Assembly: GCA_018064345.1 (NCBI GenBank)
Contig: JAGHVK010000005.1
Coordinates: forward strand, 1-49,722
DNA length: 49,722 nucleotides
Direction of reading: 5' to 3'
Origin: Candidatus Cacconaster merdequi
GTDB taxonomy: Bacteria; Bacteroidota; Bacteroidia; Bacteroidales; UBA932
Positions within the stretch are counted from its first letter, which is position 1, and every line of letters starts with the position of its first letter. Shown here piece after piece: positions 32,739-49,722 of this stretch. The notes beneath the pieces were generated by a model. The model saw nothing but the letters and a program-made list of their open reading frames with translations. It did no database searches and had not been told where the DNA came from. A program made the position numbers and the translations under genes.

Positions 32739-33041
32739 TTATTCCTCGAAGTCCAGGCAGCAGCGCTGTGCGGTGACGGGACGGATAATGCCGTTGGCCA
32801 CTGCAAGATGGTCAGGGTGTGAGGCGTACACCTTGAGCGCATCGTAATCGACGAAAGAGGAGTCGAGCATTACGTCCACGTTGCTTGTAGGAAGACCGTT
32901 GATGTTCACTTTTATGTCGATTGTGCCTTCAATCTTTCCATTGAGGCCTTCAAGACCGGCCTTGATCGATTTCTTGATTTCGCTTTTCTGCTCTTCGCTC
33001 AAATCCTCGCGAAGTTTCCAAAGAATGATATGTTTTACCAT
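32739..33041 (-). CDS. Dabb (stress-responsive A/B barrel) domain protein
   Basis: The 100-residue protein is a single Dabb domain, a dimeric ferredoxin-like barrel. It starts MVKHIILWKLREDLSEEQK, and the central FVDYDALKVYASHPDH segment is typical. Its biochemical role is not known; related domains occur in plant stress proteins and bacterial enzymes. A -7 box at 33085-33092 suggests its own promoter although it follows the metallophosphoesterase gene on the same strand. Confidence 0.88.
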   Translation of the reverse strand: MVKHIILWKLREDLSEEQKSEIKKSIKAGLEGLNGKIEGTIDIKVNINGLPTSNVDVMLDSSFVDYDALKVYASHPDHLAVANGIIRPVTAQRCCLDFEE

Positions 33042-33104: not shown

Positions 33105-34310
33105 TTATCTGCGTCTTTTAGCCTTTACCTTGAACTGGTCCACGAGTTCTCCGTCGCGGTTATATACCTTGATGTCGAGGCATTTGCGACTGACAGAGAC
33201 CACTGCTCCCACGCACTGGTCCAATTCCCTGAGATTTATTATCTTGTCGTGAAGGCCGTCGGTGTACTGCCCTTCGTCAGGGACTCTTGTCTTCCTTCCT
33301 GAAGAACCCATATCAAGATACCACACTCCATCGATTTCGTGAGTGCGGGAATACATATGGTCGTGACCGCTCAGTACAAGGTCCACTCCCGCTTCCACGT
33401 ATGCAGGCACCCACAGTGGAGTGAGGTACTTGTGTACTCCTGAATCATTTGTGTAGGATGACATGAGTGACTTGTGCTGGAGCACTATCAGGTAGTCGTA
33501 TCTTCCTTCAAGTTCCTTTGCGGTCCTGATTATCCAGTCCCTCTCCATTTTCGAGTTTTCGCTCACCGGTGTGTTTGAGTCACCGCAGTCGAGACTCAGG
33601 AAGAGCACACGGTTGTAGATGAACCAGTAGTTGGATCCTTTGCAGCAATCCGTTCCATTCTGAGGGAAGTTGAAGATGGCATTGTAGGTCAGCGGGCTCT
33701 TCAACTGTTCGATATGACCGTTCGGATATGGCAGGCCCCAGTATTCGTGGTCACCCGGTGATGAGGCGTAGATGAATCTGCTGAAGATGTCGTCCTGCCC
33801 GAACAGCCATTCCCACTCATCCTGATGGGCTGCATAGTCAATCATGTCTCCGCTGCAGACCGAAAGGACTGAATGTCCGGCAATGGAGTCTATGAGTCTG
33901 ATGAGGTTGTGCGTGTATGGGTTGAAGCGTGTCTGGAAATCGGTGAATGCGTTGAATGTCCATTTCCGGGAACCGTTTGCCGTGGTGAAGTGATACGTGC
34001 CGCTCGCAGTGTCAGCGGCGCAGATTCTGTAGATGTAGCTGTGGCCCTTTTTCAGGTTGTCCATATTCACTTTGCAGACATAACGCTCGATTGCGAATAG
34101 TGAATCGCAACAATCCGTGCTCCAGAGAGTCTCTTTCGGATATATTTTATCCGCAGAAAGGAATGCCGTATCGCGTGAGTCGGTCAGTTCCATATAACTT
34201 CCCTTGACATCAGTGTGCCAGTTCACGTTGATGCTGTGTGATGCGTCCTCACCGGGGCAGGTGACGATGAAATTGATCAGTGACGCAAGAATTACCGTTA
34301 ATAAGCTCAT
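33105..34310 (-). CDS. Secreted metallophosphoesterase, purple-acid-phosphatase-like
   Basis: The 401-residue protein has a hydrophobic N-terminal signal (about 1-17), a fibronectin-like beta domain (about 25-110) and a calcineurin-like phosphoesterase domain. Metal motifs are in order: FTDFQTRF (near 121), SGDMID (near 151), SSPGDHEYWG (near 186), the His in LQHKSLMSS, and SGHDHMYSRTHE (near 313). The first motif has DxQ for DxH, and GDHE replaces GNHE, so the metal site is not standard. It overlaps the MATE fusion gene by four bases (ATGA), placing it in the NRPS operon. Removal of a phosphate mask from the product outside the cell is conceivable but unproven. Confidence 0.85.
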   Translation of the reverse strand: MSLLTVILASLINFIVTCPGEDASHSINVNWHTDVKGSYMELTDSRDTAFLSADKIYPKETLWSTDCCDSLFAIERYVCKVNMDNLKKGHSYIYRICAADTASGTYHFTTANGSRKWTFNAFTDFQTRFNPYTHNLIRLIDSIAGHSVLSVCSGDMIDYAAHQDEWEWLFGQDDIFSRFIYASSPGDHEYWGLPYPNGHIEQLKSPLTYNAIFNFPQNGTDCCKGSNYWFIYNRVLFLSLDCGDSNTPVSENSKMERDWIIRTAKELEGRYDYLIVLQHKSLMSSYTNDSGVHKYLTPLWVPAYVEAGVDLVLSGHDHMYSRTHEIDGVWYLDMGSSGRKTRVPDEGQYTDGLHDKIINLRELDQCVGAVVSVSRKCLDIKVYNRDGELVDQFKVKAKRRR

Positions 34311-36007
34311 AAGGATATACTGTTAATTGTTAATATGTTCTGAGAAAAGAGGCGGTCGTATCGTGCCCCGGAAGGCAGCGAAGCGGAAAGTTCTTCATCT
34401 TCAAGCGGATTGAAGAGTTCACCGTCTGAATGAACGGAGAAGTCGATTGAACTGTCCCGCAGGACGAGTTTGTAGTCGATGTGGCGTGCATGTCCCTTTT
34501 CTGAAAGAGCCGTTGCAAGATGTGTGCTGCACTCAGCCACCATCCGTGATTTGGCGGAGTTGCACTTTTTCTCTTCAAGGAAGGACACAATGGTGCGGGA
34601 CAGCTCTTCAATCTCCTCGGGGATGGCTGCAACAGACAAGTCGAGTGATGTATATGGCATTTCTTCCGGTATGAGGAGAAGAGGGGACAGATGCCTGTCT
34701 TTCAGACGTATGGCGAATGTTACTATGACGAGCAGCAGTGCTGCGGCAAGCTCTCCCGCAGCGAAGCCGCTCCAAGGATTGATTGCCGGATGTGCCGTGG
34801 CGAGCGAGGCGGCAGCGCTGAATCCTATGAGAGGCAGCAGAGCCTGTGCAACGGAAAGAAGCGTGGCTATGTACTTGTGACCGGATATCTGGTAGATCGG
34901 GACAAGGTCGCCCAATAACGCCATAAGAACTATATATATTGAAAATGAAGGCAATGCGTAGGTCACTGCTGCCATATCACTCTCTGAAGTCACACCGAAA
35001 AGTGCGGAAAGAGCGCGCGGGAAGATGAGTATCACTGCGAAGTACAGCAACAGGCATATTCCAAGGAAACGGTAGGCTCTTGCTGTAAGCATCCGGATGC
35101 CCCGGTAATCACCCATTCCCTTGAGCAGTGAGCCGACAGGCTGTATCGTCCGGTATGTGCCGTTGATGAATACCGTCGAGAATACAAGCAACTGCATACA
35201 GACGGCGTATGCCACAAGTCCGCTGTCACCGAAAGCGGCTGCGGCTATGTTGTTGGAGCAGGCGAACTGCACTGCCACGAGGATACTGCTCAGAAAGAGA
35301 GGCAGCCCGAGTGTAAGCAGCGGTGCGGCCTGGCCTCTTTCCACTTTGGAAGTGAGCTTCAGCTTGCCGCTCTTCCTGAAGTGAGGAAGCACCATCACCA
35401 CGCACACTATGTACATTATGCAGGTGGCCAGTCCTGCACCGGTGATGCCCATTCCGAAGAATCTGATGAATACGACATCAAGGCAGAGGTTCACGGCATT
35501 GCTGACCACAATCGCTCTTGTTGCAAGATGAGGGTCGCCGTCCACCGTGACAAAAGAGTCCAGCACGGTCATCAGCATCATCGGAAGAATCGACAATACC
35601 ATTATCCGAAGGTACAGGCCGGCCATCGGTGCTATACTTTCCGAACTGCACAGTGTGTTGAGCAGAGGCTTGAACAGCAGGTTGCCGGTAATGGTCAGAA
35701 CCACTGCGGCGGAAACGGTCAGGAACAGGGTGAGGGAGAAGGCACTGTCGGCCTTCGTGCGTTCTCCTTTCCCGATGGCCATCCCGGTGAGCATCGTGCC
35801 TCCGGCCGCAAGCAGCACGGAAATCGAGAACACGGCCTGAAGTACAGGCTTGCATATATTGACTGCAGCAAGGGCTCCGCTTCCAAGAAGATTGCCCACT
35901 ATCGAAGCATCCACGATGCTGGCTATCTGCGCGGCGGCGACAGTCATTATGGATGCTCCAAGGTAGCTCCTGAATGCTTTTCCTACAAGATGTGAAGTCC
36001 TTTTCAA
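34307..36007 (-). CDS. MATE-family exporter fused to an RsbW-like ATPase domain
   Basis: The first 430 or so residues form a twelve-helix MATE exporter (MOP superfamily; SYLGASIMTVAAAQIASIV begins helix 1), which normally extrudes small molecules using an ion gradient. The last 120 residues resemble histidine-kinase-like ATPases of the RsbW/anti-sigma type: AECSTHLA at the N-box, HSDGELFNP at the G1 box, and a closing SQNILTINSIS strand. The Mg-binding Asn of the N-box is His here, so ATP binding may be lost. The frame opens at 36262, but codons before 36013 overlap the PaaK-like gene. I take TTG 36007 as start; TTG 36013 is equally possible and no ATG fits. It lies 14 bases after the second PaaK-like gene, in the NRPS operon. 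Confidence 0.82.
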   Translation of the reverse strand: MKRTSHLVGKAFRSYLGASIMTVAAAQIASIVDASIVGNLLGSGALAAVNICKPVLQAVFSISVLLAAGGTMLTGMAIGKGERTKADSAFSLTLFLTVSAAVVLTITGNLLFKPLLNTLCSSESIAPMAGLYLRIMVLSILPMMLMTVLDSFVTVDGDPHLATRAIVVSNAVNLCLDVVFIRFFGMGITGAGLATCIMYIVCVVMVLPHFRKSGKLKLTSKVERGQAAPLLTLGLPLFLSSILVAVQFACSNNIAAAAFGDSGLVAYAVCMQLLVFSTVFINGTYRTIQPVGSLLKGMGDYRGIRMLTARAYRFLGICLLLYFAVILIFPRALSALFGVTSESDMAAVTYALPSFSIYIVLMALLGDLVPIYQISGHKYIATLLSVAQALLPLIGFSAAASLATAHPAINPWSGFAAGELAAALLLVIVTFAIRLKDRHLSPLLLIPEEMPYTSLDLSVAAIPEEIEELSRTIVSFLEEKKCNSAKSRMVAECSTHLATALSEKGHARHIDYKLVLRDSSIDFSVHSDGELFNPLEDEELSASLPSGARYDRLFSQNILTINSISL

Positions 36008-36025
36008 TTTCAAGACAGGTTCTAA
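36008..36025 (-). repeat. Dispersed repeat joining a stop and a TTG start
   Basis: On the minus strand TTAGAACCTGTCTTGAAA includes the TAG of the PaaK-like gene and one of the two TTG codons that can start the MATE fusion gene. Confidence 0.6.
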
Positions 36026-37278
36026 TCCACTCTGTGGTCTATGACTTTCTTTATCTTCCCGGTGATAGGGTTGCGCGGCAGGCTTCCCAGCTCCACAGGA
36101 ACCACCTCGTACCTGCGGAAGAAGCCTATCTTCAAGCCGCCCCCGATATCCTTTATCCTGCTGGAGAGTATCTTTTCGAGTCTGCGGGCATCTTCGGCAC
36201 ATCCGGCAGGATTGTCGCACTCGACGCTTACGACAAGGTCCATCCGGTTGCCTGCATCGCACATCTCTATCTGGAAATTAAGGCTGAAAGCATCCACTTC
36301 GCTGACAGCGCGCTCGAACTCTCCGACGGTCACATAAGCACCGCCCAACTTGAAGTCCTCACCCGCACGGCCGGCAAGACGATACTTTCCATCACCGCTC
36401 CAAAGCGCAACGTCACCGATGCGGTATCGCAGGACAGGATGAAACTTGCGGACAAGGCTGGTGACGAGTATCTCTCCTGTCTCGCCCGGTCCGACAGGCC
36501 GCATAGTTTCAGGATCGACTATTTCTATCAGCTGGAAATCATCGAGGGTGTGGTACTCCCCGAAGCCGCAGTCTTCGCTCTGATATCCCATTATCCCGCA
36601 GTCTCCGCTGCTGTAGGCAAGAGGCTTTATCTCCTCCACTCCCAGCCATTTGCGAACATAGCTTTCCGATTCGCGGCTCATCTGCTCTCCCGCGAAGCAT
36701 ATCAGTCTCAGTCCTTCGAAAGGTTTTCCCTCCTTCTTCGCAAGGTCGGCCATAAGCACGAAGAAGGTTGGAAGCGACATCATTACAGTCGGCTTGTATT
36801 CGCGGCACAGCTTGTAGGCCTCCTCCACACCTATGTTGGCTGAAATAGGAAGATCGACGCAGTGGCTGCGCATTATAGTTTCGTGAGCACCTATGAAAGA
36901 CGGCCACAGATGACCGGCCACGAAGAGGTTTGCCACACGGTCTTCTTCATTCACGCCCAGGCGGCGGAACGCTTCGGCCTGTCTGTCGCAGAATATGTCC
37001 CATTCCTCTCTTTTGAGCACGATTGTGCGTGCTACACCGGAACTTCCTCCCGTGCTGCTGATTATTGCATCCGAAAGAGGTCCGGTGAACATCGATTCAG
37101 AACGCGGGTAGGTGTTGTCGTACAGTTCGCTTCTTTCGAGGACAGGGATTCGGTACCAGTCGTCCCAGGTCTGAGGCTGGGGAGTATTACGGTATTTTTC
37201 AGCGTAATAAGGTGCTTTTTTCGCTGCCTGCAGTATCTCTGATGCAAGTTCCAGCTGGCTTTGACTGAAGTTTTTCAT
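36022..37278 (-). CDS. PaaK-like adenylate-forming enzyme (second of two)
   Basis: The 418-residue protein is in the phenylacetate-CoA ligase/AMP-binding group. It has the phosphate-binding loop SSTGGSSGVAR (about 72-82), LAYSSGDCGIMGYQ near 215, and RYRIGDVALWSGDGKYRLAGRAGEDFK near 285, where Asp binds the AMP ribose and GRAGE is the hinge. A C-terminal lid follows, ending NPITGKIKKVIDHR with the likely catalytic Lys. Such enzymes activate aryl or acyl acids as adenylates and then CoA thioesters. Next to the NRPS it could supply the acyl starter. It starts 13 bases after the first PaaK-like gene, with a repeat copy across the gap. Confidence 0.88.
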   Translation of the reverse strand: MKNFSQSQLELASEILQAAKKAPYYAEKYRNTPQPQTWDDWYRIPVLERSELYDNTYPRSESMFTGPLSDAIISSTGGSSGVARTIVLKREEWDIFCDRQAEAFRRLGVNEEDRVANLFVAGHLWPSFIGAHETIMRSHCVDLPISANIGVEEAYKLCREYKPTVMMSLPTFFVLMADLAKKEGKPFEGLRLICFAGEQMSRESESYVRKWLGVEEIKPLAYSSGDCGIMGYQSEDCGFGEYHTLDDFQLIEIVDPETMRPVGPGETGEILVTSLVRKFHPVLRYRIGDVALWSGDGKYRLAGRAGEDFKLGGAYVTVGEFERAVSEVDAFSLNFQIEMCDAGNRMDLVVSVECDNPAGCAEDARRLEKILSSRIKDIGGGLKIGFFRRYEVVPVELGSLPRNPITGKIKKVIDHRVD

Positions 37279-37294
37279 TCCAAAACAGTTACTA
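37276..37294 (-). repeat. Dispersed repeat bridging the two PaaK-like genes
   Basis: On the minus strand TAGTAACTGTTTTGGAATG begins with the stop of the first PaaK-like gene and ends with the ATG of the second. It differs from the consensus at two or three bases. Confidence 0.5.
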
Positions 37295-38638
37295 TATTAC
37301 GAAACGGTGTTTGAGGTTGGCTTGAAGTGAGGATATGTCCTTGGTGGTGACGGTGATGAGCGGCTTGCCGAAAGATTTGACGAGGTTGCCGTACTTGATG
37401 CTGAACTCTGCATTGTTGGAACAGAGGAAATCAATCAGGAGCGTTTTGAATCTTTCAGAGGAGGCGTGGCTTTCACCGCGAGTGTAGATTATGAACTCGA
37501 ATATGCTGATCTCCTCCTCCTTTGCTTCGTGGACGGTATAGAGTCCGCCGTAGCCCTCCGAGTCGGGAAGTGAGAGGAGGTGGTTCTGTATGTCGCTTAT
37601 CATCAGGTTGGTACCGTAGAATATCACGGCGTTGTCGGCTCTTCCGCAGACAAACATAATCTCCGTTGGCAGCCCTTCAAGGATGCTGTCGGGGACAATT
37701 CCTTGCAGATCGGAGCGCTTGAGCATGCCTCCGCAGTCGTTGGTGTCGTATCTTACAAGAGGTATGAACTGGTCCTTCGTGACCACTATGTGTGAATCGA
37801 TTATCTCCACGAGGCAGTCCGGCGTCATCTCAAGTATCATCGGGGTATCTTCCGTGCCGAAGAACCGTCTGCTTTCGGCAGGGTGTCCGGCAAACCATTT
37901 GCGAAGACGGATAGATGGTACGGTCTCGACAGAGACAGCCCCGGTGTCGGCGCTTCCGTAGCCGGTCCACAGGACGCTCGTTGCATCAGCGGGATGCCCG
38001 TATTCGGCACAGATGTGCTCGCGCAGGTTCTCGGTGAAATATTCTCCGACGACAGGGAAATAGGTTGAGGCCGGTTTCAGCTTCACATCTTCCTTCCTTA
38101 GCAGGGCGGAGATTATCGGAATGTTCGAAGGATTGGTGATGATGAGCAGCTGGTCATACCTGTCGTGATAACTCTTTATAACTTCCACTGCGGCACGAAG
38201 GTCAAGCCCCGGCGTCGCTATGGTGAAGTTGTATTTTCCGGAAAGCCCGACCAGACGGATGGCGGTCGCAATCTGCATCCCGCCTATCCACATCCCGAAA
38301 GCGAGACATTCTATGCAGAGCGTGCTCCGGGAGTCGATGTGATAGTGGTCGATGAACATCTGTTCTATGCCGAGGACGTAAGCTTTTTCGTCGCACGGGC
38401 GTTTCGGCCAGAATACGGCTCCTGACTTTGAGAATCCGCTGCTTGCTCCGATAAGGTGAATCCCGTCGAGACTGCCTCCACGGCACAACTCCTCAAGCGG
38501 GTTGGAAAGCAGGTAGCTGTGCTTTGTGATAACAGGCAGACTGTCAAATCTTTCTGGAAAGATTTCACCGGCCGTTCTCCTGTATGCCGGGACGCTGTCC
38601 CAGACTTCGTGAGCGAATTTCAAGTAATCGTTTGCCAT
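37292..38638 (-). CDS. Divergent PaaK-like adenylate-forming enzyme (first of two)
   Basis: The 448-residue protein also has the PaaK fold, but its phosphate loop reads GASSGFSKSGAVFWP (near 64) instead of the common SSGTTGxP. Later motifs are recognisable: TGYGSADTGAVSVET near 225, VRYDTNDCGGMLKRSD near 295, and FVCGRADNAVIFYGTNLMIS near 330. It is too unlike its neighbour to be a recent duplicate. It may activate an acid, or load a carrier protein directly as some family members do. It begins five bases after the NRPS stop, so it is tightly coupled to it. Confidence 0.85.
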   Translation of the reverse strand: MANDYLKFAHEVWDSVPAYRRTAGEIFPERFDSLPVITKHSYLLSNPLEELCRGGSLDGIHLIGASSGFSKSGAVFWPKRPCDEKAYVLGIEQMFIDHYHIDSRSTLCIECLAFGMWIGGMQIATAIRLVGLSGKYNFTIATPGLDLRAAVEVIKSYHDRYDQLLIITNPSNIPIISALLRKEDVKLKPASTYFPVVGEYFTENLREHICAEYGHPADATSVLWTGYGSADTGAVSVETVPSIRLRKWFAGHPAESRRFFGTEDTPMILEMTPDCLVEIIDSHIVVTKDQFIPLVRYDTNDCGGMLKRSDLQGIVPDSILEGLPTEIMFVCGRADNAVIFYGTNLMISDIQNHLLSLPDSEGYGGLYTVHEAKEEEISIFEFIIYTRGESHASSERFKTLLIDFLCSNNAEFSIKYGNLVKSFGKPLITVTTKDISSLQANLKHRFVI

Positions 38639-38643
38639 ATATC

Positions 38644-41600: not shown

Positions 41601-44600
41601 GTACTTGAAAATCAGCATCCGATGTGCGATGGAACTTCTCAAGTACCGCCTTCCTCTCTTCGCTCAACATACTTGTCTTGTTGATTGGTGAGTCAGGTGA
41701 TGCCTTCATTGTACGGGCAACAGTGACAATGCTTTCGCCGAGCGACTGCATCAGAAAGCGGCTGTAGAGCGAATCATCGTACTGGAGAACTACTGAAGGC
41801 ACTCCGTCGTGAAGTTCCACGAGCACGCCTATCTTGAATTTTGGAGCATCAAGTCCGAACGAGCCTGCCGCAACGCTTTCACCGTTTACCTTGTATTCGG
41901 AGAGAACGTCCATCTGGTATGCGTAGGTTATTGCCGCAGAGTAGCCGTAATCTGCCGCAATGAGGGAGAACGGATAGTTTTCGCGGGCGATGGTACTTCG
42001 GAAAGTGGCGGACACCTCTTTCAGATATTCGCTCACGCTCTGGTTTCTGATATGCATCGATACCGGCAGAGTATTGACGAACATCCCGACAGTCGAAGCT
42101 ATGTCGAGATTTCCTCTTCCGCTGCTGACCGTAGAGATGTATATGTCTTTCGTACTTGCATAACGCCCAATCGCATAGCCTGATGCGGCAAGCCAGAGGT
42201 CTGCGGCGGTAATACCCTCGATATCCGTCACAAGGCACTCCTCCGGGATTCTGACTGCCACTTCCGCCTGTTTGCCCGGTGCTGCTCCTGATATGTCGGA
42301 AGATATTTCAGTGACTGTCTCGAACTCTTTCAATTCATCGGCGAAGAATGCCTTGTACTCTTTGAAGGCCACGCTTGAAGCGAATAATTCCTGGTCGCGG
42401 CAGTAGTCGAGATAGGTGTAACCCTCTTCCTTGATTGAGACGCCTTCAATCTCCTGAATCATCTCCTGCAGCATAATGTCGTAAGAGCTTCCGTCGCATA
42501 CGAGGTGGTGGATGTCCATAAGGAGCACCGGCCCTTGTGAAGCGTCCCGGGACTTTATTATCACTGCTCTCCAGAGCGTATCGGAAGCAAGGTTGAAAGG
42601 ACGCACGAAGGTCTTCTTCTCTTCTTCCACATCAGCGTTCCTTATGTCGATGGATGCCGCAGGCACATTCTCGGGGATTGTCTGGATTATGTCGTCCTTG
42701 CCATCGTCCACAAAACGGGCGGAGAGCTCCGGATGCGCCAGGATTACCTTCTCCACTGCATCCCGCAGTTTTTCACAGCTGACGGATGAAGGGAAACGGA
42801 TTTCCATAGGAATGTTGTAGAGGGTGCTGTCAGGGTTTGCAATGCAGTCCACATAGACACCCTGCTGCGGGAAAGAGAGCTTCGCGGAGCCATATCTGAG
42901 TGACTCCTTCCTCTCTTCCTCTGACTTCGGAGAATCTTTCCGGCTTGTGGCCGCGTCGCCTCCGAATGTCTCTTCAAGAATGATGTTCTCGATGTCTGCA
43001 ACCGAAGCTCCATCGAGTATGCTGCTTCCGCTTATCCTGACTCCGAACTGTTTGAAAAGCTGGACGGAGAGCCTCATAGAAAGGATTGATGAGAGACCTT
43101 GTGCCGAAAGAGGCCGGGTGATTCCCTCTACGGGATTCCCCGTGAGTTTTGCCGTGAGGTCAAGTATTCTCTTTTCAAGGTAGTTTGGCTCGCGGTCAGG
43201 CCCGGCATCCGCAGACGATGTCTCTTCCGCTTTCGGTACAGGCAGCTTCCTGCGGTCCACTTTCTGATTGACGTTCAGAGGAATGGCATCAATCTGCATA
43301 GTTACGGCAGGCACCATATATGACGGCTTCCGCTCCAGGATGAATCTGTTGAGGGCTGATATGTCCACTGCGGCCTCGCTTACCACATAAGCCGCTATGA
43401 ACTTTCCTCCGCTTTCAAGGTCAAAGGCCTGCACAGTGGCATCTTTTATCCCTTCGAACTCCCTTATGACAGCCTCCACTTCCTTGAGCTCGATTCTGAA
43501 TCCGCGAATCTTGACCTGTCCGTCACGACGCCCTACGAATTCTATGTTTCCGTCTGTGCGGTAGCGTACTATGTCGCCTGAACAGTAGGAATCCCTTCCG
43601 AATCTTCCGAATACCTCCGCTGTCTTTTCGGGAAGGTTCAGATAGCCTTTCGAAATCTGGTCCCCCAATACCACCAGTTCGCCACAGGCTCCCACAGGCA
43701 CTCTTCTTCCGTTCTTGTCCACTATGATGCAGGATATTGTGTCAAGAGGTCTTCCGATAGGGATATCTTTCTCGTAGTGTGTGACCGGGAAGGTTGTGGT
43801 GAATACGGTACATTCGGTAGGGCCGTAGGCGTTGTACAACCTGTAGCTCTCCGGAACGGCGGATATGGAAGGCATCTTCTCACCTCCTATTGTGAGATGC
43901 TTCAGGGTCGGGTGACTTGCAAAGGATACTGCGAACTGATAGCCCACCTGGGTGGTCATAAAGCTGTGAGTGACCTTGTTAGCGGCCATATAGTCCGAAA
44001 GTGCTTCGAGGTCGAGACGTGTTTCTTCCGGAACGATGCATACTCCGGCCCCGGTAGTGAGAGCCGCATAGAGGTCCATCATATCGGCATCGAAGCCGAA
44101 GGATGCGTATGCGAGGACGACTCCGTTGCTGTCAAGCGAGTAATAACGCCTGTACCAGTCGCAGAATGTGACTATGTTGTGCTGGCTGATGCGCACCCCC
44201 TTCGGTTTTCCGGTTGAACCTGAGGTGTACAGGAGTATGAATATGTCGTCACCGGTGCAGCCTCGCAACTCTTTGACGGATTGAGGAAGATTGCCGGTTT
44301 CATCCGTGAAGAGGACATTCCCTTCGTACCCGCTGACAAGAGGACGCAGGTCCCGGTCTGCTATGAGCAGTCCCGCACCGCTGTCCCGGAGCATATATTC
44401 CAGCCTTTCGGCCGGATAGCTCGGGTCAAGAGGCTGGTATGTGGCTCCTGCCTTCATTGCGGCAAGAGTGTATGCCGGAAACATCTCCGACCGGTTCACC
44501 ATTATCGCCACAACTTCGCTTTCGATTGCAGCGGCAATCCTGTCGCTCAACCTGTCGAGTTCGCGGTAGGTGAGCGAGTGTTCCCTGAAGGTTACTGCGA

Positions 44601-45972
44601 GGTTGTCAGGGTGCTCTGCCGCCGCCTGTCGGAACAGGCTCAGAATCGTGGCATCAGGGTCGGCCCTGTGTATCTCTGGGTTGAAGCTGTCGAGAAGAGA
44701 AGTCTGCTCACCGTCAAGAAGGTCTGTCTGAGAGAGGTCATCCTTGAAGAGCATTCCACTCAGGACATTGCGGTATGTTGTGGTCAGCTGTCTTATGAAC
44801 TCTTTTGAGTACCTGTCGGCGGCATACTGTGTCGTACATTTGTAACCTCCTTCAGGTGAAAGATATACGTTTGCCAATATTTCATAGCCGGGCCTGAAGG
44901 TACGCAGGTCGGTGGCCTTGATGCGGTTTCCTCCGAGGAAAATGTCGTAGTCGTACAACGGCCCCTGGAACGCGAAGCATACCTGTGGGTTGAGGGAAAG
45001 GTCGCTGCAGCATTCTCCAAAGGAGTAGATGGTCCTTGTGCGTGCCTCTTTCAACTGTTTGAACGTACTCTTGAGCTGCCAGCCGGTATCTGATGTTCTG
45101 CTGAAGTCCTGAAAGACAGGGAAAGTCTTGACCATCATTCCGAAGGAACGCCGGGTGCGCGAGTCATTGCGGCCGTGGTGGATGGTTGCGAAGAGCGCCT
45201 GAGATTCACCGCTGTAGCACGCCAGTGTATATCCGAATGCAAGGGTGAACGGAGCGCTTGTCCCGACTTCGTGCTTCTTGCAGAAGTCCGATATTTCAGC
45301 ATGACGCAGTCCCAGGTCGAAAGTATCTTTCGCCCAGAGTCTTCCGCCGGTTTCGGAGTCGTCGTCCTTCAGGTCGGGGATGGGGAGTGAATCGGTTTCG
45401 GCAGCAGGAGCGAACTCATTTGCGTACCATTCCCTGGCTTCTTCGTATTCGGCCCCGCCGCGCCTTGTCTCTTCATCAGTGGCGATTTCAAATCCGTCCA
45501 TCTCCTCCGGAGACAGACTCTTTCCGTCGTATGCTTCGCTCAACTCCTTCCTGAAGTTGGAGAAAGAGATTCCGTCGAACACTATGTGGTGGAAGCATAC
45601 ACCGAACCAGGTATCACCATTATCCGTACAGATGCCGAATCTTACGAGATTCTCGTCGAGAAGATTGAACCTGCTCTGCATCCGGACTTTGAGCTCTTCA
45701 AGGGAAAGGTATCTTCTTACAACCCCTCCGTCCAGTACATCCTCCACTCTTCCCGGCTTGAGGCGAAGCTGCCCGTCGTCTGTCTGGACAAGCCTTGAAC
45801 AGATGTATCTGTGGTTATCGAGCACGCTGTAAAGCGCCTTCTCAAGCCTCTGACAGTCGGCATTCCTGCCAAGATTGTACACGAGGTCAATGTTGTAGTC
45901 GGAATTACCACTCGCAGAAGTTTCGGAAAGATAGATGCCCAATTGGGTTAGCGAAACAGGGAAGTCATTCAT
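38644..45972 (-). CDS. Two-module non-ribosomal peptide synthetase with terminal thioester reductase (C-A-T-C-A-T-R)
   Basis: At 2,442 residues this is the largest gene of the window. Order: C1 about 1-430 (HHIVFDG near 128), A1 about 445-915 (YTSGSTGKPKG near 580), T1 about 925-1000 (GLSSILSMRL, a weak match to GGxSL), C2 about 1030-1450 (HHLVCDG near 1152), A2 about 1475-1945 (YTSGSTGTPKG near 1604), T2 about 1955-2030 (GGTSLMAMRL), R about 2060-2442 (FLTGATGYLG near 2074, YSRSK near 2234). Manual alignment to GrsA gives pocket codes DAMFTGAVF(K) and DLLSQGMIC(K); neither is one I can assign. The leading C domain suggests an acyl starter, and the R domain suggests NAD(P)H-dependent release as an aldehyde or alcohol. 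No epimerisation or thioesterase domain, and no phosphopantetheinyl transferase gene in the window. Confidence 0.97.
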   Translation of the reverse strand: MNDFPVSLTQLGIYLSETSASGNSDYNIDLVYNLGRNADCQRLEKALYSVLDNHRYICSRLVQTDDGQLRLKPGRVEDVLDGGVVRRYLSLEELKVRMQSRFNLLDENLVRFGICTDNGDTWFGVCFHHIVFDGISFSNFRKELSEAYDGKSLSPEEMDGFEIATDEETRRGGAEYEEAREWYANEFAPAAETDSLPIPDLKDDDSETGGRLWAKDTFDLGLRHAEISDFCKKHEVGTSAPFTLAFGYTLACYSGESQALFATIHHGRNDSRTRRSFGMMVKTFPVFQDFSRTSDTGWQLKSTFKQLKEARTRTIYSFGECCSDLSLNPQVCFAFQGPLYDYDIFLGGNRIKATDLRTFRPGYEILANVYLSPEGGYKCTTQYAADRYSKEFIRQLTTTYRNVLSGMLFKDDLSQTDLLDGEQTSLLDSFNPEIHRADPDATILSLFRQAAAEHPDNLAVTFREHSLTYRELDRLSDRIAAAIESEVVAIMVNRSEMFPAYTLAAMKAGATYQPLDPSYPAERLEYMLRDSGAGLLIADRDLRPLVSGYEGNVLFTDETGNLPQSVKELRGCTGDDIFILLYTSGSTGKPKGVRISQHNIVTFCDWYRRYYSLDSNGVVLAYASFGFDADMMDLYAALTTGAGVCIVPEETRLDLEALSDYMAANKVTHSFMTTQVGYQFAVSFASHPTLKHLTIGGEKMPSISAVPESYRLYNAYGPTECTVFTTTFPVTHYEKDIPIGRPLDTISCIIVDKNGRRVPVGACGELVVLGDQISKGYLNLPEKTAEVFGRFGRDSYCSGDIVRYRTDGNIEFVGRRDGQVKIRGFRIELKEVEAVIREFEGIKDATVQAFDLESGGKFIAAYVVSEAAVDISALNRFILERKPSYMVPAVTMQIDAIPLNVNQKVDRRKLPVPKAEETSSADAGPDREPNYLEKRILDLTAKLTGNPVEGITRPLSAQGLSSILSMRLSVQLFKQFGVRISGSSILDGASVADIENIILEETFGGDAATSRKDSPKSEEERKESLRYGSAKLSFPQQGVYVDCIANPDSTLYNIPMEIRFPSSVSCEKLRDAVEKVILAHPELSARFVDDGKDDIIQTIPENVPAASIDIRNADVEEEKKTFVRPFNLASDTLWRAVIIKSRDASQGPVLLMDIHHLVCDGSSYDIMLQEMIQEIEGVSIKEEGYTYLDYCRDQELFASSVAFKEYKAFFADELKEFETVTEISSDISGAAPGKQAEVAVRIPEECLVTDIEGITAADLWLAASGYAIGRYASTKDIYISTVSSGRGNLDIASTVGMFVNTLPVSMHIRNQSVSEYLKEVSATFRSTIARENYPFSLIAADYGYSAAITYAYQMDVLSEYKVNGESVAAGSFGLDAPKFKIGVLVELHDGVPSVVLQYDDSLYSRFLMQSLGESIVTVARTMKASPDSPINKTSMLSEERKAVLEKFHRTSDADFQVHTFHEGIERWARLTPEATAVTACDRTLTYKEFNDAAGRMANALIKEGLHRSDKVVLLLPRRSDFLVAALAVMKCGAAYIPMDPEYPVERISYILGDSEGRFVITTADKTSDYPGRAIDIEDLVRKSAECSESVTGVEVSEDDLAYLIYTSGSTGTPKGVMIQHRGISNYLSPHPDNPHTYAVATASKGVVCSATVSFDLSILEYGTALFNGKTLVLADEQATTDSLRLAALYRETGADVLSGTPSRIETYMEIPEYREIVASCRIVQMGGEKLPSSLVRRLKEITDADIFNMYGPTEITICCNASRVNDSEEITVGRPLPGFSEFIIDCDGNELPAGVTGELLISGPSLSPGYHNLPEKTAASFIEWNGLRAYKSGDLARWDENGAVLILGRTDSQVKLNGLRIELGEIESVMSRQNGVRQCVVVIRKVSGQDKLVAYYTESTPTDIASIKAGMQEKLTPYMVPSIFIKLDTMPVTPAGKIDTRHLPEPKAAASEYIEPRNDVERFFCDAVARTLNLERVGITDNFFEIGGTSLMAMRLSVAISHGGYQIAYKDIFNFPTPGEMASFASGGESIGKQSEEEEDREITGYDYSLIEKTIRANNVTTYLNDTSKRPLGRVFLTGATGYLGIHILYELLKDKDVPAIYCLVRGGKGKSPEIRLQTLLFYYFDDSYAQEFGKRLFVVDGDVTKPFDYFNEKIDTLINCAANVKHFSAGTDIEDINIGGVANCIDLCLRSGALFVQTSTGSIGGISFKEDGVTAPHILREDEFYFGQQLENKYSRSKFIAERSILEAIALKGLKAKIMRLGNLAPRSRDGEFQINSYSNSYMGRLKAFRTLGVAPYDALVSQTELSPIDDTARAICLLAGTNDRCVVFHVSNSHRSLVADVINCMNKAGLTIKPVDNGRFERELKKALEDPEKADILQSLLAYSGRSDGRSAIFNTYTSIYTTVVLMHLGFQWNTTTWDYMEQFLLKIQSLGFFGNEIKR

Positions 45973-46042
45973 ATTCTTCTGTATATTACGCGAATTTAAC
46001 TATTTTTTGCTTCTTTATCGGTAAAGTGATGCTTAAAAAGTG

Positions 46043-46050
46043 TAAATTTG
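46043..46050 (+). promoter_or_regulatory. -7 box for the SpoIIE-STAS genes, nearly leaderless
   Basis: TAAATTTG ends five bases before the ATG at 46056, the same layout and octamer as at gmk. It lies in the 83-base region between the divergent NRPS and phosphatase genes. On the NRPS side I find no TAnnTTTG match, so that operon may need another sigma factor or an activator. Confidence 0.6.
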
Positions 46051-46055
46051 CATAT

Positions 46056-47825
46056 ATGAGCAGGTTGTCTTTCAAGAATGTCATCGTGTGGATTGCGGCT
46101 GTCGGCGCTTTCGTCTCCGTATTCGGATTCTGGGCCGTCATCCGTTATCTGAAGGGTGAAGTGACGGTATGGGTGCAGCAGGAGGCCCAGCACTCTTCGG
46201 CATACGTACACAACTATGTGGACGGAAGCCTTGAAAGCACGGAAAGGCTCGCTTTTGCCTTGGCTGCCGAGATGTTCGATGACTTCTCATATCTTCCCGA
46301 TGGAACCGCAAATGTGAGATACAGCCCTGGTCGTGGACGAATCGTTTCGGAAGAGGAGATATTCCATACACTTGACCTTTTCCTTGCTTCAAACCCTCAC
46401 ATCTATGGAGTGGGCATCGGTTTCAGGGAGGCGCCGGGGCATCTTCCAAAGTACGAGTACGGTTTCGGATGCTACAGTTCCAACACCTCCGAAGGTGTGA
46501 AGCGGTATCAGATGGGCGGACTTTGGGACTACCACTATGATGAATGGTATTGTGAGGTGCTTGACGGAAAGCCACGCTGGTGCCATCCTTTCGAAGAGAT
46601 GAGCGGCAAGGTTGTAGCCGGTTTCAGCGTGCCGGTATTGGACAGCGATTCGAATGTGGTGGCAGTCCTGGCCCTGGGCATCGATACCGAAATCTTCCAG
46701 AAGAAGTGTACGGAAGTGACTCCGATCCCCGGTTCCGACATATCCCTTATTGACGGAAGCGGACGTTTCATAGCCAACAGCGAACCATATCTTCTTCTGA
46801 GTGATGCCCGCAAATCACCGAGACACGCGTCCCTCTTTGAAGACAAGGAATCTGACACCATCGATTTTACGGAAGTATCTTCCATTACAAGGAACGGAAC
46901 GATATTCTACTTCACCCCGATAGAGCGCAGCGGATGGACAATCTGTGCCGAGTTCCCCGACAAGGCTGTGCTTGAAAGTTTGAAGGATGTCATCTTCAAG
47001 GTCTCGATGATTTCAATGGTGAGCCAGGCGTTCATCATCCTTTTCATCGCTCTGCTCTTCTTCAGGGCTTTGAAAATCGCTTCCGGCAAGGCAAGCATCG
47101 AAAGGGAACTTTCGATAGCTTCCCATCTGCAGATGGAGATGCTTCACCCGCGCTGTCCTGACAGAAGCAAGACAGGCGGATGCGACTTCTTCGCATATCT
47201 CAATTCCGCGGCTGATATCGGAGGTGACCTGTATGACTACCGTCTGCACGATGGGAAACTCTATTTCTGCATAGGTGACGTGGCTGGCAAGGGTGTACCG
47301 GCATCTCTCTTCATGGCCGGTGTGCTCGAACTCTTCCGCAACGAAATATTCCATACTGACTCTCCTGCCAGGATAGCGACTCACATCAACCTCACACTTG
47401 CCTCTTCGAGCGATTCGGATATGTTCTGCACGATGTTCATCGGTGTGCTTTATCCTGAAAGCGGGAGGCTCGTCTATTGCAATGCCGGTCATAACCCTCC
47501 ATTGCTCGGAGGCCGGTTCCTCGATTCGTGGAAGGTCCTCCCGGTAGGGGCAATGAACGGTACCGTCTATCGGGATATGGAAGTAGTGATGAAGAAAGAT
47601 GATTATCTTGTGATGTACACCGACGGAGTGACCGAGGCTGAAAATTCCCGTGGGGAATTTTTCGGCAATGAAAGACTTGCAAAGGCTCTCGGAGAGGTCG
47701 GCCCGTCAAGTGAATGGAATGCGGAAAGAATTGTGAATCACTTGCTTGGCGGTGTTAAGAAGTTCGCGGGAAAGGCAAGCCAAAGCGACGATATCACGAT
47801 TGTGGCCATAGGTGGAGGCTTGTGA
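46056..47825 (+). CDS. Membrane dCache-SpoIIE (PP2C) serine phosphatase
   Basis: The 589-residue protein has a transmembrane helix (about 7-31), a periplasmic dCache-type sensor (about 35-285), a second helix (about 316-337) and a cytosolic PPM/SpoIIE phosphatase domain. Metal-binding motifs are ADIGGDLYDY (near 387), GDVAGKGVPASLFM, YTDGVTEAEN and SQSDDITIVAI (near 575). Such enzymes dephosphorylate STAS anti-sigma-antagonists when the sensor binds its ligand. The ATG at 46056 is chosen over the open frame from 45795, which overlaps the NRPS gene and crosses the -7 box. The STAS gene lies 69 bases downstream, a classic pairing. Confidence 0.93.
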   Translation: MSRLSFKNVIVWIAAVGAFVSVFGFWAVIRYLKGEVTVWVQQEAQHSSAYVHNYVDGSLESTERLAFALAAEMFDDFSYLPDGTANVRYSPGRGRIVSEEEIFHTLDLFLASNPHIYGVGIGFREAPGHLPKYEYGFGCYSSNTSEGVKRYQMGGLWDYHYDEWYCEVLDGKPRWCHPFEEMSGKVVAGFSVPVLDSDSNVVAVLALGIDTEIFQKKCTEVTPIPGSDISLIDGSGRFIANSEPYLLLSDARKSPRHASLFEDKESDTIDFTEVSSITRNGTIFYFTPIERSGWTICAEFPDKAVLESLKDVIFKVSMISMVSQAFIILFIALLFFRALKIASGKASIERELSIASHLQMEMLHPRCPDRSKTGGCDFFAYLNSAADIGGDLYDYRLHDGKLYFCIGDVAGKGVPASLFMAGVLELFRNEIFHTDSPARIATHINLTLASSSDSDMFCTMFIGVLYPESGRLVYCNAGHNPPLLGGRFLDSWKVLPVGAMNGTVYRDMEVVMKKDDYLVMYTDGVTEAENSRGEFFGNERLAKALGEVGPSSEWNAERIVNHLLGGVKKFAGKASQSDDITIVAIGGGL

Positions 47826-47839
47826 CCTGTTTTGAAATG
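47824..47839 (+). repeat. Dispersed repeat at the phosphatase stop
   Basis: GACCTGTTTTGAAATG shares its first bases with the TGA of the phosphatase gene, in the gap before the STAS gene. Confidence 0.6.
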
Positions 47840-47894
47840 AAAGAGTGCGAGCGACTGCCGCACTTCCACAATAATATTGTATCTGTTTGATAAT

Positions 47895-48200
47895 ATGAAA
47901 TGTAAGATAAAGACCAAAGATGATTCCACAGTCTGTACCCTGCAAGGGAAGATAGGTACGAAGGAGGCTGACGAGTTCGCAGCCAAGTATCTCCCTCAGT
48001 TGATTGATAATGCCGGAGGAACCATTCTCTTCAAATGCGAGGATCTGGAGTTCATCTCTTCTTCCTGGCTCCGCAAGCTTCTGACACTTGCCAAGAACGT
48101 TGCTGACAAAGGTGGCAAGGTCACCCTTTCGGGAATCCGTCCCGAACTTCGCGAAGTGCTTGATGTCACCGGTTTCACCACTATCGTGGAAATAGTGTAA
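47895..48200 (+). CDS. STAS-domain anti-sigma factor antagonist
   Basis: The 101-residue protein is a single STAS domain like SpoIIAA/RsbV. FKCEDLEFISSSWLRKLL (about 46-63) holds the phosphorylation loop; Ser56 aligns with the phosphorylated serine of the ISSAGLR pattern, although Trp replaces the usual small residue after the Ser run. Dephosphorylated, it should bind and titrate a kinase-type anti-sigma factor. No separate RsbW or sigma factor gene is in the window; the ATPase-like tail of the MATE fusion is the only local candidate partner. The ATG at 47895 is preferred to the one at 47877. Confidence 0.9.
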   Translation: MKCKIKTKDDSTVCTLQGKIGTKEADEFAAKYLPQLIDNAGGTILFKCEDLEFISSSWLRKLLTLAKNVADKGGKVTLSGIRPELREVLDVTGFTTIVEIV

Positions 48201-48244
48201 GACTGCCTCAAAACGGGCATATTCTTTGATAGGAAACAATCTGT

Positions 48245-48273
48245 CTTTCCGTGCCTCTTCAATGGCAGGAAAG
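48245..48273 (+). other. Hairpin in the leader of the TolC-family gene
   Basis: CTTTCC and TGCC pair with GGCA and GGAAAG, ten pairs with one bulged G around an eight-base loop. It lies 33 bases before the TolC start and has no U-tract, so it looks like a leader structure rather than a terminator. Confidence 0.45.
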
Positions 48274-48306
48274 GTGGATGCTGACCAATCATAAATAGTC
48301 CATTAT

Positions 48307-49680
48307 ATGAGGAAGTTTCTTTTATATCTTTTACTGACATCGCTGCCGCTGTGTGCGGTGGCTCAGACAGACGGCCTGAGCGGCCCTATGTCACTTAAAC
48401 AGTGTCTGGAGTACACTGTTGAAAACAATGTCTCACTACAGAAGGACAGGCTCGCGATGGAGGCTGCCGCCCAGTCCAGGCGTGAGATAGTCGGAGCACT
48501 CCTGCCTCAGGTCAGTGCATCCGGCTCATATTCCTACAATATTCAGAAGACCACGATTGCAATGCCGAACTTCGTCAATTCGATGATGCCGGAGGCGATG
48601 CGTGATCCGAATGCACCTAAGTATATGACGGTTACGATGGGTATGGACCAGAGTGCCAACTGGGGGGTCGCCCTGACGCAACAGCTTCTCAATTTCTCTC
48701 TTTTCAATGCTGCAGGCATTGCCAAAGCAGCGGAAGAGATGTCGAAGATGGGTGCGGAGGCTGACACCGACGATGTCATAGCGAAGACTGCCACGCTCTT
48801 CTACAATGCACAGGTGCTTGAGTACTCTATGTCGCTCTTCGACGAAAGTCTCGCTGTTATGGAGAGAATGACAGGCATAATGGAGGCCAATCGTGAGGCT
48901 GGAATCGTCAGGAATGTGGATGCTGACAGAATAGCAGTGACGAAGATGAATCTTCTTACGGAAAAGTCGTCCCTTGCCCAGGCTCTTGAGATTCAGAAGA
49001 ACCTCCTCAAGCTTCAGATGGGATTCCCTATGGATTCACCTTTGGAACTGGAGCCCGCGGATATGGAACAGATTGAGGAGATGCTTTTTGCAGAGCCCGC
49101 CGCAACTTTCGATGTCGAGACGCAACTGCCTTACAAGATGCTCAAGAAGCAGCAGACGATGCTCGACTTCCAGAAAAAGTCGGCGATATCGGAGGCTCTT
49201 CCCGCACTGGTATTCAATGCCAACTATTCGCAGAACTATATGGGTGACCATTTCTACGGCGAGACTTTCCATCATTTCCCCGTATCGATGCTTACCCTCA
49301 GTCTGAAGGTTCCTATCTTCTCGGGAATGTCGAAGAGCGCCAAGGTGAAGAAGGCGGCCATAGAGATTGAAAAGTCTCAAAGAGACGAAAAGATGCTTGT
49401 GCAGTCACTTACGATGGGATATAAGAATGCAAGGATGCAGATGGAAACCAACCGGAGCACAATCGGTTCCCAGAAGCGGAACAAGACTCTTGCTCAGGAT
49501 GTCCTCAAAGTTACGGAAAACAATTACAAGGAGGGCCTTGCCTCCCTCTCGGACCTGCTCAATGCGTCATCTTCACTCATACAGGCGCAGATGAACTACG
49601 TGAACGCGCTCAACACCTGCGTCAAAGCCTATATCGACCTCAGGAAGGCCGATGGAACGATAAGCTCCCTGACCAGATAG
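48307..49680 (+). CDS. TolC-family outer-membrane efflux protein
   Basis: The 457-residue protein has a signal peptide (about 1-19, ending CAVA-Q) and the two-repeat OEP/TolC pattern. MSLKQCLEYTVENNVSLQ begins repeat one, a Tyr/Ser-rich strand region contains SYSYNIQK, and long helices end in SLSDLLNASSSLIQAQMNYVNALNT. It forms a trimeric channel with an inner-membrane pump for type I or RND/ABC efflux. An ATG at 49718 just downstream probably starts its membrane-fusion partner, outside the window. Proximity to the NRPS cluster suggests product export, but that is inference. Confidence 0.93.
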   Translation: MRKFLLYLLLTSLPLCAVAQTDGLSGPMSLKQCLEYTVENNVSLQKDRLAMEAAAQSRREIVGALLPQVSASGSYSYNIQKTTIAMPNFVNSMMPEAMRDPNAPKYMTVTMGMDQSANWGVALTQQLLNFSLFNAAGIAKAAEEMSKMGAEADTDDVIAKTATLFYNAQVLEYSMSLFDESLAVMERMTGIMEANREAGIVRNVDADRIAVTKMNLLTEKSSLAQALEIQKNLLKLQMGFPMDSPLELEPADMEQIEEMLFAEPAATFDVETQLPYKMLKKQQTMLDFQKKSAISEALPALVFNANYSQNYMGDHFYGETFHHFPVSMLTLSLKVPIFSGMSKSAKVKKAAIEIEKSQRDEKMLVQSLTMGYKNARMQMETNRSTIGSQKRNKTLAQDVLKVTENNYKEGLASLSDLLNASSSLIQAQMNYVNALNTCVKAYIDLRKADGTISSLTR

Positions 49681-49722
49681 ATAATAGTGGATAATAATGT
49701 AATAAAAATAACAGTATATGAA
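49681..49722 (+). other. Window edge with start of a further gene
   Basis: After the TolC stop an AT-rich spacer leads to ATG at 49718-49720, where the window ends. A periplasmic adaptor (HlyD/AcrA type) is common in this place, but only the start codon is visible. Confidence 0.3.

What the first reader, a model, noticed from the sequence alone, without database searches (positions are those of the whole stretch)
33105..49722. Candidate signal-controlled pathway for a reductively released dipeptide
A C-A-T-C-A-T-R synthetase, two unlike PaaK-type acid-activating enzymes, a MATE exporter with a regulatory-type ATPase tail and a secreted phosphoesterase form one operon. It diverges from a sensor-SpoIIE phosphatase, a STAS protein and a TolC channel. 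Reductase-terminated two-module NRPSs of gut bacteria are known to make N-acyl dipeptide aldehydes and pyrazinones that act as protease inhibitors. This combination with partner-switch regulation and two PaaK enzymes is not one I recognise.
Basis: partly seen in the sequence, partly recalled or inferred. Interest (0 to 1): 0.85.

Follow-up and report, generated by a model that had tools for sequence, protein, structure and literature searches.

The report
Signal-controlled gut bacterial peptide-aldehyde cluster
A gut bacterium carries genes that probably make and export a small reactive peptide, next to a membrane sensor and protein switch; the same pairing of peptide factory and switch recurs in many gut bacteria of plant-eating animals, and in some the switch part is built into the export pump.

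The parts
38644..45972 (-). NRPS, 2442 aa, C-A-T-C-A-T-R; A-domain ten-letter codes DAMMTGAVFK and DLLSQGMICK
   Evidence: Pfam/NCBIfam; motifs; codes (positions recalled from GrsA, placed by motif)
37292..38638 (-). PaaK1: very divergent PaaK-fold protein, 448 aa, no Pfam family
   Evidence: relatives L045 (70%) and L149 (43%)
36022..37278 (-). PaaK2: PaaK-like AMP-dependent acid-activating enzyme, 418 aa
   Evidence: Pfam AMP-binding and AMP-binding_C_2; best PDB match phenylacetate-CoA ligase 4r1l E 1.1e-23
34307..36013 (-). MATE exporter with a C-terminal SpoIIAB/RsbW-fold tail
   Evidence: Pfam MatE; TTG start; aligns along almost its whole length to the L041 MATE-HATPase, 27.7%
34307..34675 (-). 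degenerate (pseudo-kinase) SpoIIAB-like tail of the MATE: N-box E/E/N replaced by T/H/A, D83 by S, G2 box missing
   Evidence: model pLDDT 93.2; Foldseek and VIA best to SpoIIAB, RsbW, UsfX
33105..34310 (-). purple-acid-phosphatase-like metallophosphoesterase with N-terminal hydrophobic segment; overlaps MATE by 4 bp
   Evidence: Pfam; hydrophobic segment 1-19; one weak match (L088, 22.5%) among loci held
46056..47825 (+). membrane sensor phosphatase: two hydrophobic segments (9-27, 318-336) around a dCache_1 domain, then SpoIIE/PP2C; no HATPase domain
   Evidence: the invariant Asp columns of the alignment are present
47877..48200 (+). STAS-only protein (anti-sigma-factor-antagonist type), candidate phospho-Ser kept in ISSSWLR
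   Evidence: Pfam STAS E 3.1e-12, TIGR00377 over cut-off; alignment with STAS proteins of 56 loci
48307..49680 (+). TolC-family outer-membrane channel, 457 aa; no counterpart found in the related loci
   Evidence: Pfam OEP; no tblastn match at 1e-5 in the 123 loci held
32739..33041 (-). Dabb-domain protein 63 bp downstream of the operon, same strand; membership uncertain
   Evidence: Pfam; gap

Best explanation
This is a biosynthetic cluster for a secreted N-acylated dipeptide released by reduction (aldehyde, possibly going on to a pyrazinone or alcohol), put under a partner-switching phosphorylation switch. Proposed order of events: PaaK1/PaaK2 activate a carboxylic acid that the N-terminal C domain joins to the first amino acid; the NRPS adds a second and its R domain releases the product; the MATE protein exports it. 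A periplasmic dCache domain senses an unknown ligand and controls the SpoIIE phosphatase, which dephosphorylates the STAS protein; free STAS then engages a SpoIIAB-like partner. Shown by sequence: the domains, the conserved phosphatase and reductase residues, the recurrent linkage of NRPS with SpoIIE-STAS, and (by prediction) the SpoIIAB-like fold of the MATE tail. Inferred: substrates, product, ligand, direction of control, and that STAS binds the MATE tail. In this genome the tail is unlikely to be the kinase; a separate intact HATPase on contig C113 is the only candidate found.
For: C-A-T-C-A-T-R layout and motifs. SpoIIE and STAS both next to the NRPS in 32 of 39 well-flanked relatives against about 0.9 with SpoIIE expected from 57 matches in 50.5 Mb. 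In all 80 loci: SpoIIE 50, STAS 55, any switch gene 57; 49 of 50 SpoIIE genes share the NRPS strand. Of 32 cluster SpoIIE proteins that I picked (window and 31 relatives), 30 match dCache_1 and 26 HATPase_c_2 at E <= 0.001. Own-genus relatives L137, L139, L140, L144 show the same divergent NRPS/SpoIIE layout as the window. L045 repeats NRPS-PaaK1-PaaK2-MATE-SpoIIE-STAS with an identical second A-domain code. In G618 the PaaK pair sits with LuxC reductase, LuxE, MFS exporter, STAS and HATPase, without an NRPS on that contig, so PaaK pair, reduction, export and switch recur together.
Against: 7 of 39 well-flanked relatives have no switch gene in reach. In the own family SpoIIE was seen in 11 of 18 stretches fetched (8 of 15 after dropping three that repeat other loci). 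MATE is present in only 9 of the 39. The nearest R-domain relative, L044, shows no PaaK1 after its NRPS and no switch gene within view. The window SpoIIE and STAS are only distantly like those of L045 (37% over the catalytic part; 20% over 55 residues, E 0.009), so the switch is not inherited as one piece with the core. No intact kinase lies in the window. No product, substrate or phosphorylation was measured, and the A-domain codes match no specificity I can assign.
Confidence: 0.68

Rival explanations
1. Classical use: STAS titrates an unlinked SpoIIAB-like anti-sigma factor, and the switch sets transcription of the cluster; the MATE tail is incidental.
For: The canonical partner switches act this way (PMC8256260, passages). 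An intact HATPase lies unlinked on G000:C113 next to another STAS that is 36% identical to the window STAS.
Against: The same passages also describe STAS proteins with other or unknown targets. Among 440 unassigned neighbouring ORFs within 6.5 kb, none of the 14 groups of three or more members looked like a sigma factor or DNA-binding regulator, judged by eye from one sequence each, with five groups typed by Pfam. An ECF-sigma-like gene (my reading) occurs in two loci, L074 and L110, beside a very large outer-membrane-receptor-like gene. The kinase domain is repeatedly fused to the exporter instead.
Confidence: 0.35
2. The switch in the window is decayed: with the MATE tail dead and no local kinase, STAS stays unphosphorylated and the cluster is constitutive.
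For: Tail residues lost; SpoIIE lacks a HATPase domain. Own-genus loci L137 and L139 also have SpoIIE-STAS without a HATPase in view; in L140 and L144 the view is cut.
Against: SpoIIE catalytic residues and STAS serine are kept; the predicted tail fold is kept with high confidence, which decay alone would hardly preserve; C113 holds an intact candidate kinase.
Confidence: 0.2
3. Neighbourhood only: gene-dense mobile loci bring NRPS and switch genes together with no control of one by the other.
For: PaaK1 and PaaK2 (70%, 75%) are more alike between window and L045 than the UvrB proteins of the two genomes (65%), which suggests transfer; NRPS (60%) and MATE (52%) are not.
Against: 32 of 39 against about 1 expected, 49 of 50 co-oriented, kinase domain fused to the MATE in 13 of 80 loci.
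Confidence: 0.08
4. The R domain carries out a four-electron reduction or the product is a cyclised imine rather than a free aldehyde, and its role is signalling or metal or redox chemistry rather than protease inhibition.
For: AusA, the nearest NCBIfam model, gives an amino aldehyde that cyclises to pyrazinones.
Against: The starter C domain here suggests N-acylation, which would block that cyclisation (inference); otherwise no evidence either way in sequence.
Confidence: 0.3

Closest known systems
Methanobrevibacter ruminantium M1 NRPS cluster mru0066-mru0071 (PMC2812497)
   Same: Two-module NRPS with an N-terminal C domain, flanked by two serine phosphatases, an anti-sigma factor antagonist and a MatE exporter; the authors already proposed sensing, regulation and export. 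A further cluster (mru0513-0516) there holds a serine phosphatase, an antagonist, a kinase and a phosphopantetheinyl transferase. A supplementary legend names a thioester reductase domain.
   Different: Archaeon; main text calls the last domain a thioesterase; no PaaK pair, kinase-exporter fusion or survey described in the passages read. Sequence not compared here.
AusA (aureusimine synthetase) and gut dipeptide-aldehyde NRPSs such as the rup cluster of Ruminococcus bromii
   Same: Two-module NRPS ending in a reductase; AusA is the best NCBIfam model. The rup products are reported as dipeptide aldehydes (PMC12327764, passages).
   Different: AusA is A-T-C-A-T-R without starter C domain (PMC12153313, passages); score 983 against a cut-off of 2500, so not an AusA equivalog. 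The rup sequence was not compared.
RsbU-RsbV-RsbW / SpoIIE-SpoIIAA-SpoIIAB partner switches
   Same: PP2C phosphatase, STAS protein and SpoIIAB-fold domain.
   Different: No linked sigma factor in the window; the SpoIIAB-like domain sits on an exporter and has lost its ATP-binding residues here.
SiaABCD of Pseudomonas and Rv1364c (RsbU-RsbW fusion)
   Same: SiaA is the top NCBIfam model for the window SpoIIE, far below cut-off; SiaB and Rv1364c structures are among the fold matches of the tail.
   Different: SiaABCD output is not an exporter (recalled); Rv1364c is a soluble fusion (recalled).
PaaK phenylacetate-CoA ligases
   Same: PaaK2 matches solved PaaK enzymes over almost its whole length.
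   Different: PaaK1 is too divergent for Pfam and forms a pair with PaaK2 in three loci.

Membership tests
Aureusimine synthetase AusA | NCBIfam NF047350 score over its cut-off of 2500 | tested here: not met
   983.4 bits
Aureusimine synthetase AusA | A-T-C-A-T-R without an N-terminal C domain | tested here: not met
   C domain with HHIVFDG at residue 128; AusA layout from PMC12153313 passages
Reductively released two-module NRPSs | two A and T domains and a terminal NAD-binding reductase with conserved motifs | tested here: met
Reductively released two-module NRPSs | product is a dipeptide aldehyde, pyrazinone or alcohol | not testable with these tools
   needs chemistry
Partner-switching system | SpoIIE/PP2C phosphatase with conserved Asp residues | tested here: met
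   the Asp columns invariant among 32 rows (window included) are present; that they bind metal is recalled
Partner-switching system | STAS protein with phosphorylatable serine in the conserved loop | tested here: met
   ISSSWLR aligned to I(A/S)SSGLR-like loops of relatives; phosphorylation itself not tested
Partner-switching system | active SpoIIAB/RsbW-type kinase encoded in the same locus | tested here: not met
   only SpoIIAB-fold domain found is the MATE tail, N-box and G2 box lost; intact HATPase_c_2 found only on C113. A HATPase is present in 51 of 80 relatives.
Partner-switching system | sigma factor as output | tested here: inconclusive
   no sigma-factor group of three or more among neighbours, one ECF-like pair in L074 and L110; an unlinked one is not excluded
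M. ruminantium mru0068-type cluster | two-module C-A-T-C-A-T NRPS with serine phosphatase, anti-sigma antagonist and MatE neighbours | tested here: met
   gene content against the text of PMC2812497
M. ruminantium mru0068-type cluster | common descent of the NRPSs | not tested
   the mru0068 sequence was not at hand; no tool here fetches a genome gene by name
PaaK phenylacetate-CoA ligase (TIGR02155) | score over the cut-off of 646 | tested here: not met
   PaaK2 87.8 bits; PaaK1 13.0 bits: PaaK-like, not PaaK

The most novel reading that the evidence does not exclude
A partner switch whose output is a transporter: dephosphorylated STAS docks on a SpoIIAB-type domain fused to the MATE exporter and gates release of a reactive peptide, so a periplasmic signal controls secretion directly instead of through a sigma factor. 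In most other MATE fusions the domain keeps its ATP-binding motifs (by eye) and may be an active kinase; in the window it has become a pseudo-kinase receptor for STAS phosphorylated elsewhere.
Probability: 0.3. Interest if true: 0.82.

Novelty: new variant of a known kind. Interest (0 to 1): 0.62.

Why it matters
Gut dipeptide-aldehyde pathways are known for their chemistry, much less for when they are switched on (my judgement). A recurrent sensor phosphatase beside the synthetase in gut Bacteroidales makes that question testable: the dCache ligand would tell what the producers respond to. A SpoIIAB domain moved onto an exporter would also be a sigma-free output for one of the best-studied bacterial switches.

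Tried and rejected
PaaK1 structure: AlphaFold with two sequences gave mean pLDDT 35, discarded; no fold search was run on it. Assigning amino acids from the A-domain codes: the codes use GrsA positions recalled from memory and placed by motif; they match no specificity I could assign, so I compare them only with each other. TolC and phosphoesterase as conserved parts: rejected. The two PaaK-like genes in L088 and on G000:C47 resemble each other in length and order; I took them for primary metabolism, not for the PaaK1-PaaK2 pair. An E<=1e-90 R-domain search of 395 phylum genomes found only the window; that cut-off and sample miss rarer or more distant members, and the 40 of 299 found in the own family used a looser 1e-40. 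In one search at most two candidates per genome were scored. Promoter and terminator scans were about at chance.

The 39 are those with at least 3 kb on both sides of the NRPS frame; the other 41 have less on one or both sides. The seven of 39 without switch genes are L055, L056, L058, L059, L088, L105, L113; six of them have under 4 kb upstream. Of the three 'standalone' HATPases one (L116) begins at a locus end and may be a cut protein. The 57 SpoIIE matches include two under the family cut-off and one gene split in two. The Fisher value 0.0007 and the binomial treat loci as independent, which they are not: five of the seven MATE-only cases are one clade. Of the 40 own-family genomes I fetched stretches from 18: SpoIIE in 11, STAS alone in L141, neither in L136, L138, L142, L143, L145, L146.

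Literature: no paper found on this pairing in Bacteroidales (listings); the library lacks most subscription journals. Seen as passages only: PMC2812497, PMC12327764, PMC8241843, PMC12153313, PMC8256260.
Full report
WHAT IS THERE. The window is contig C119 of a 1.9 Mb, 84% complete, 6% contaminated MAG. It shares its order with G561, whose contig has the length of a record titled 'uncultured Bacteroidales bacterium'. Its UvrB is 75-82% identical to that of three same-genus genomes, so the contig fits its bin. The minus-strand operon is NRPS, PaaK1, PaaK2, MATE, metallophosphoesterase with gaps of 5, 13, 8 and -4 bp; the plus-strand genes dCache-SpoIIE, STAS and TolC start 83 bp away. The contig ends 42 bp after TolC.

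THE SYNTHETASE. Pfam and motif checks give C-A-T-C-A-T-R with both condensation motifs, two A domains and the reductase cofactor and YxxxK motifs. AusA is the best NCBIfam model but far below cut-off. In 393 genomes drawn from the order, with at most two candidates scored per genome, only two others gave near full-length matches at over 40% identity, G561 and G651, both from other families. An R-domain profile found the family in 40 of 299 own-family genomes at E <= 1e-40, the window's included.

THE SWITCH IS REALLY LINKED. Neighbours played no part in the choice. SpoIIE is present in 50 of 80, STAS in 55, a HATPase in 51, MATE in 25. Of the 39 with at least 3 kb on both sides, 32 hold both SpoIIE and STAS and 29 all three switch parts; about 0.9 with SpoIIE would be expected from the density in 20 genomes (57 matches in 50.5 Mb). 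49 of 50 SpoIIE genes share the NRPS strand; in L079 SpoIIE lies downstream on the other strand. The window's divergent layout is shared by the own-genus loci L137, L139, L140 and L144. Of 32 SpoIIE proteins that I picked for scanning, 30 match dCache_1 and 26 HATPase_c_2 at E <= 0.001. Against: seven of 39 show no switch gene; 11 of 18 own-family stretches show SpoIIE, three of them repeats of other loci; L044, the nearest R-domain relative, shows none in view.

THE KINASE DOMAIN MOVES ONTO THE EXPORTER. In the 80 loci the HATPase is on SpoIIE in 35, on MATE in 10, on both in 3, separate in 3 (one perhaps a cut protein), absent from view in 29. Where SpoIIE and MATE C-termini are both visible (16 loci): SpoIIE only 4, MATE only 7, both 3, neither 2; where there is no MATE, SpoIIE carries it in 31 of 34. 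On the R-domain tree the state (on SpoIIE, on MATE, both, separate, none) changes at least 15 times among hand-labelled rows. This is domain-swap evidence that exporter and switch work together.

THE PaaK PAIR. PaaK2 is PaaK-like. PaaK1 is only reached by profile comparison and weak NCBIfam hits. PaaK1 was found in 1 of 299 own-family genomes (the window), 2 of 393 order genomes (window and G618), 1 of 11 of G618's family (G618 itself) and 1 of 101 of the family of the L045 genome (itself). In L045, a horse-faeces MAG, the order is NRPS-PaaK1-PaaK2-MATE-SpoIIE-STAS; identities to the window are 60, 70, 75, 52%, then 37% over the phosphatase part and 20% over 55 residues for STAS. The second A-domain code is identical and the first differs at three of ten positions. 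UvrB of that genome is 65% identical; with the patchy distribution this suggests lateral transfer, though NRPS and MATE are less alike than UvrB. L044, which groups with window and L045 on the tree (100*), has no PaaK1 in the 742 bp after its NRPS. In G618 the pair lies in a co-oriented run with STAS, a LuxC-PaaK fusion, LuxE, an MFS exporter and a HATPase protein (GNAT match below cut-off), with no NRPS on its 25 kb contig; STAS is the last gene before the contig end. Acid activation, reduction, export and a STAS/HATPase switch thus recur together with a different reductive engine.

HOW IT PROBABLY WORKS. Acid activated by the PaaK pair, N-acylation by the first C domain, second residue added, reductive release, MATE export; a dCache ligand sets SpoIIE activity and so the phosphorylation of STAS. 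The first part follows from domain knowledge; the second from the partner-switch literature (PMC8256260, passages). What STAS acts on is the open point: an unlinked anti-sigma factor or the exporter tail.

PRIOR WORK. PMC2812497 (passages) reported in M. ruminantium a two-module NRPS with N-terminal C domain between serine phosphatases, an anti-sigma factor antagonist and MatE, a further cluster with phosphatase, antagonist and kinase, and a homologue in Syntrophomonas wolfei. Text and a supplementary legend disagree on thioesterase or reductase. PMC8241843 (passages) counted 5,346 rumen NRPS clusters and saw some Prevotella clusters, NRPS among them, more expressed in less efficient steers; its main text has no 'anti-sigma'. 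So kit and abundance are known separately; I found no paper joining them for Bacteroidales or describing the exporter fusion (searches listed under Tried and rejected).

VERDICT. A real, likely functional cluster of a known kind with a recurrent, little-noticed control module. New variant; interest 0.62.

Noticed in passing
G000:C113 (L125:9681-16731): Second switch-like run of genes in the same genome: STAS, antiporter-like protein, intact HATPase, HD/RelA-like proteins (labels by eye) and a phosphoesterase 25% identical to the window's.
   Followed up: partly
G000:C3 (L127:5962-17676): A second NRPS of about 3,904 aa between housekeeping-looking genes; no SpoIIE match anywhere on C3.
   Followed up: partly
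G000:C47 (L128:3757-6822): Two PaaK-like genes with a short gene between them, next to oxidoreductase-like genes; look like primary metabolism.
   Followed up: no
20 of 80 related loci, e.g. L092:3395-3964: Sfp-type phosphopantetheinyl transferase group near the NRPS (one representative typed by Pfam); none seen in the window cluster.
   Followed up: partly
11 of 80 related loci, e.g. L091:447-1778: Sodium:neurotransmitter symporter family gene near the NRPS (one representative typed); might supply an amino-acid precursor or re-import.
   Followed up: no
14 of 80 related loci, e.g. L101:2602-3945: About 447-aa likely outer-membrane barrel (one representative, weak Alginate_exp); in the example between STAS and NRPS, perhaps taking the place of TolC.
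   Followed up: no
L048, L049, L052 (e.g. L052:13786-14874): Three-module relatives carry a beta-lactamase-family gene (typed in L052) and a 420-aa gene with a very weak C-domain match before the MATE-HATPase.
   Followed up: no
L074:6020-6523 and L110:15227-15796: ECF-sigma-like gene (by eye) in a run with a second short gene and a very large outer-membrane-receptor-like gene, opposite strand to the NRPS.
   Followed up: no
window 32739-33041: Dabb-domain gene 63 bp after the phosphoesterase on the same strand; may extend the operon.
   Followed up: no
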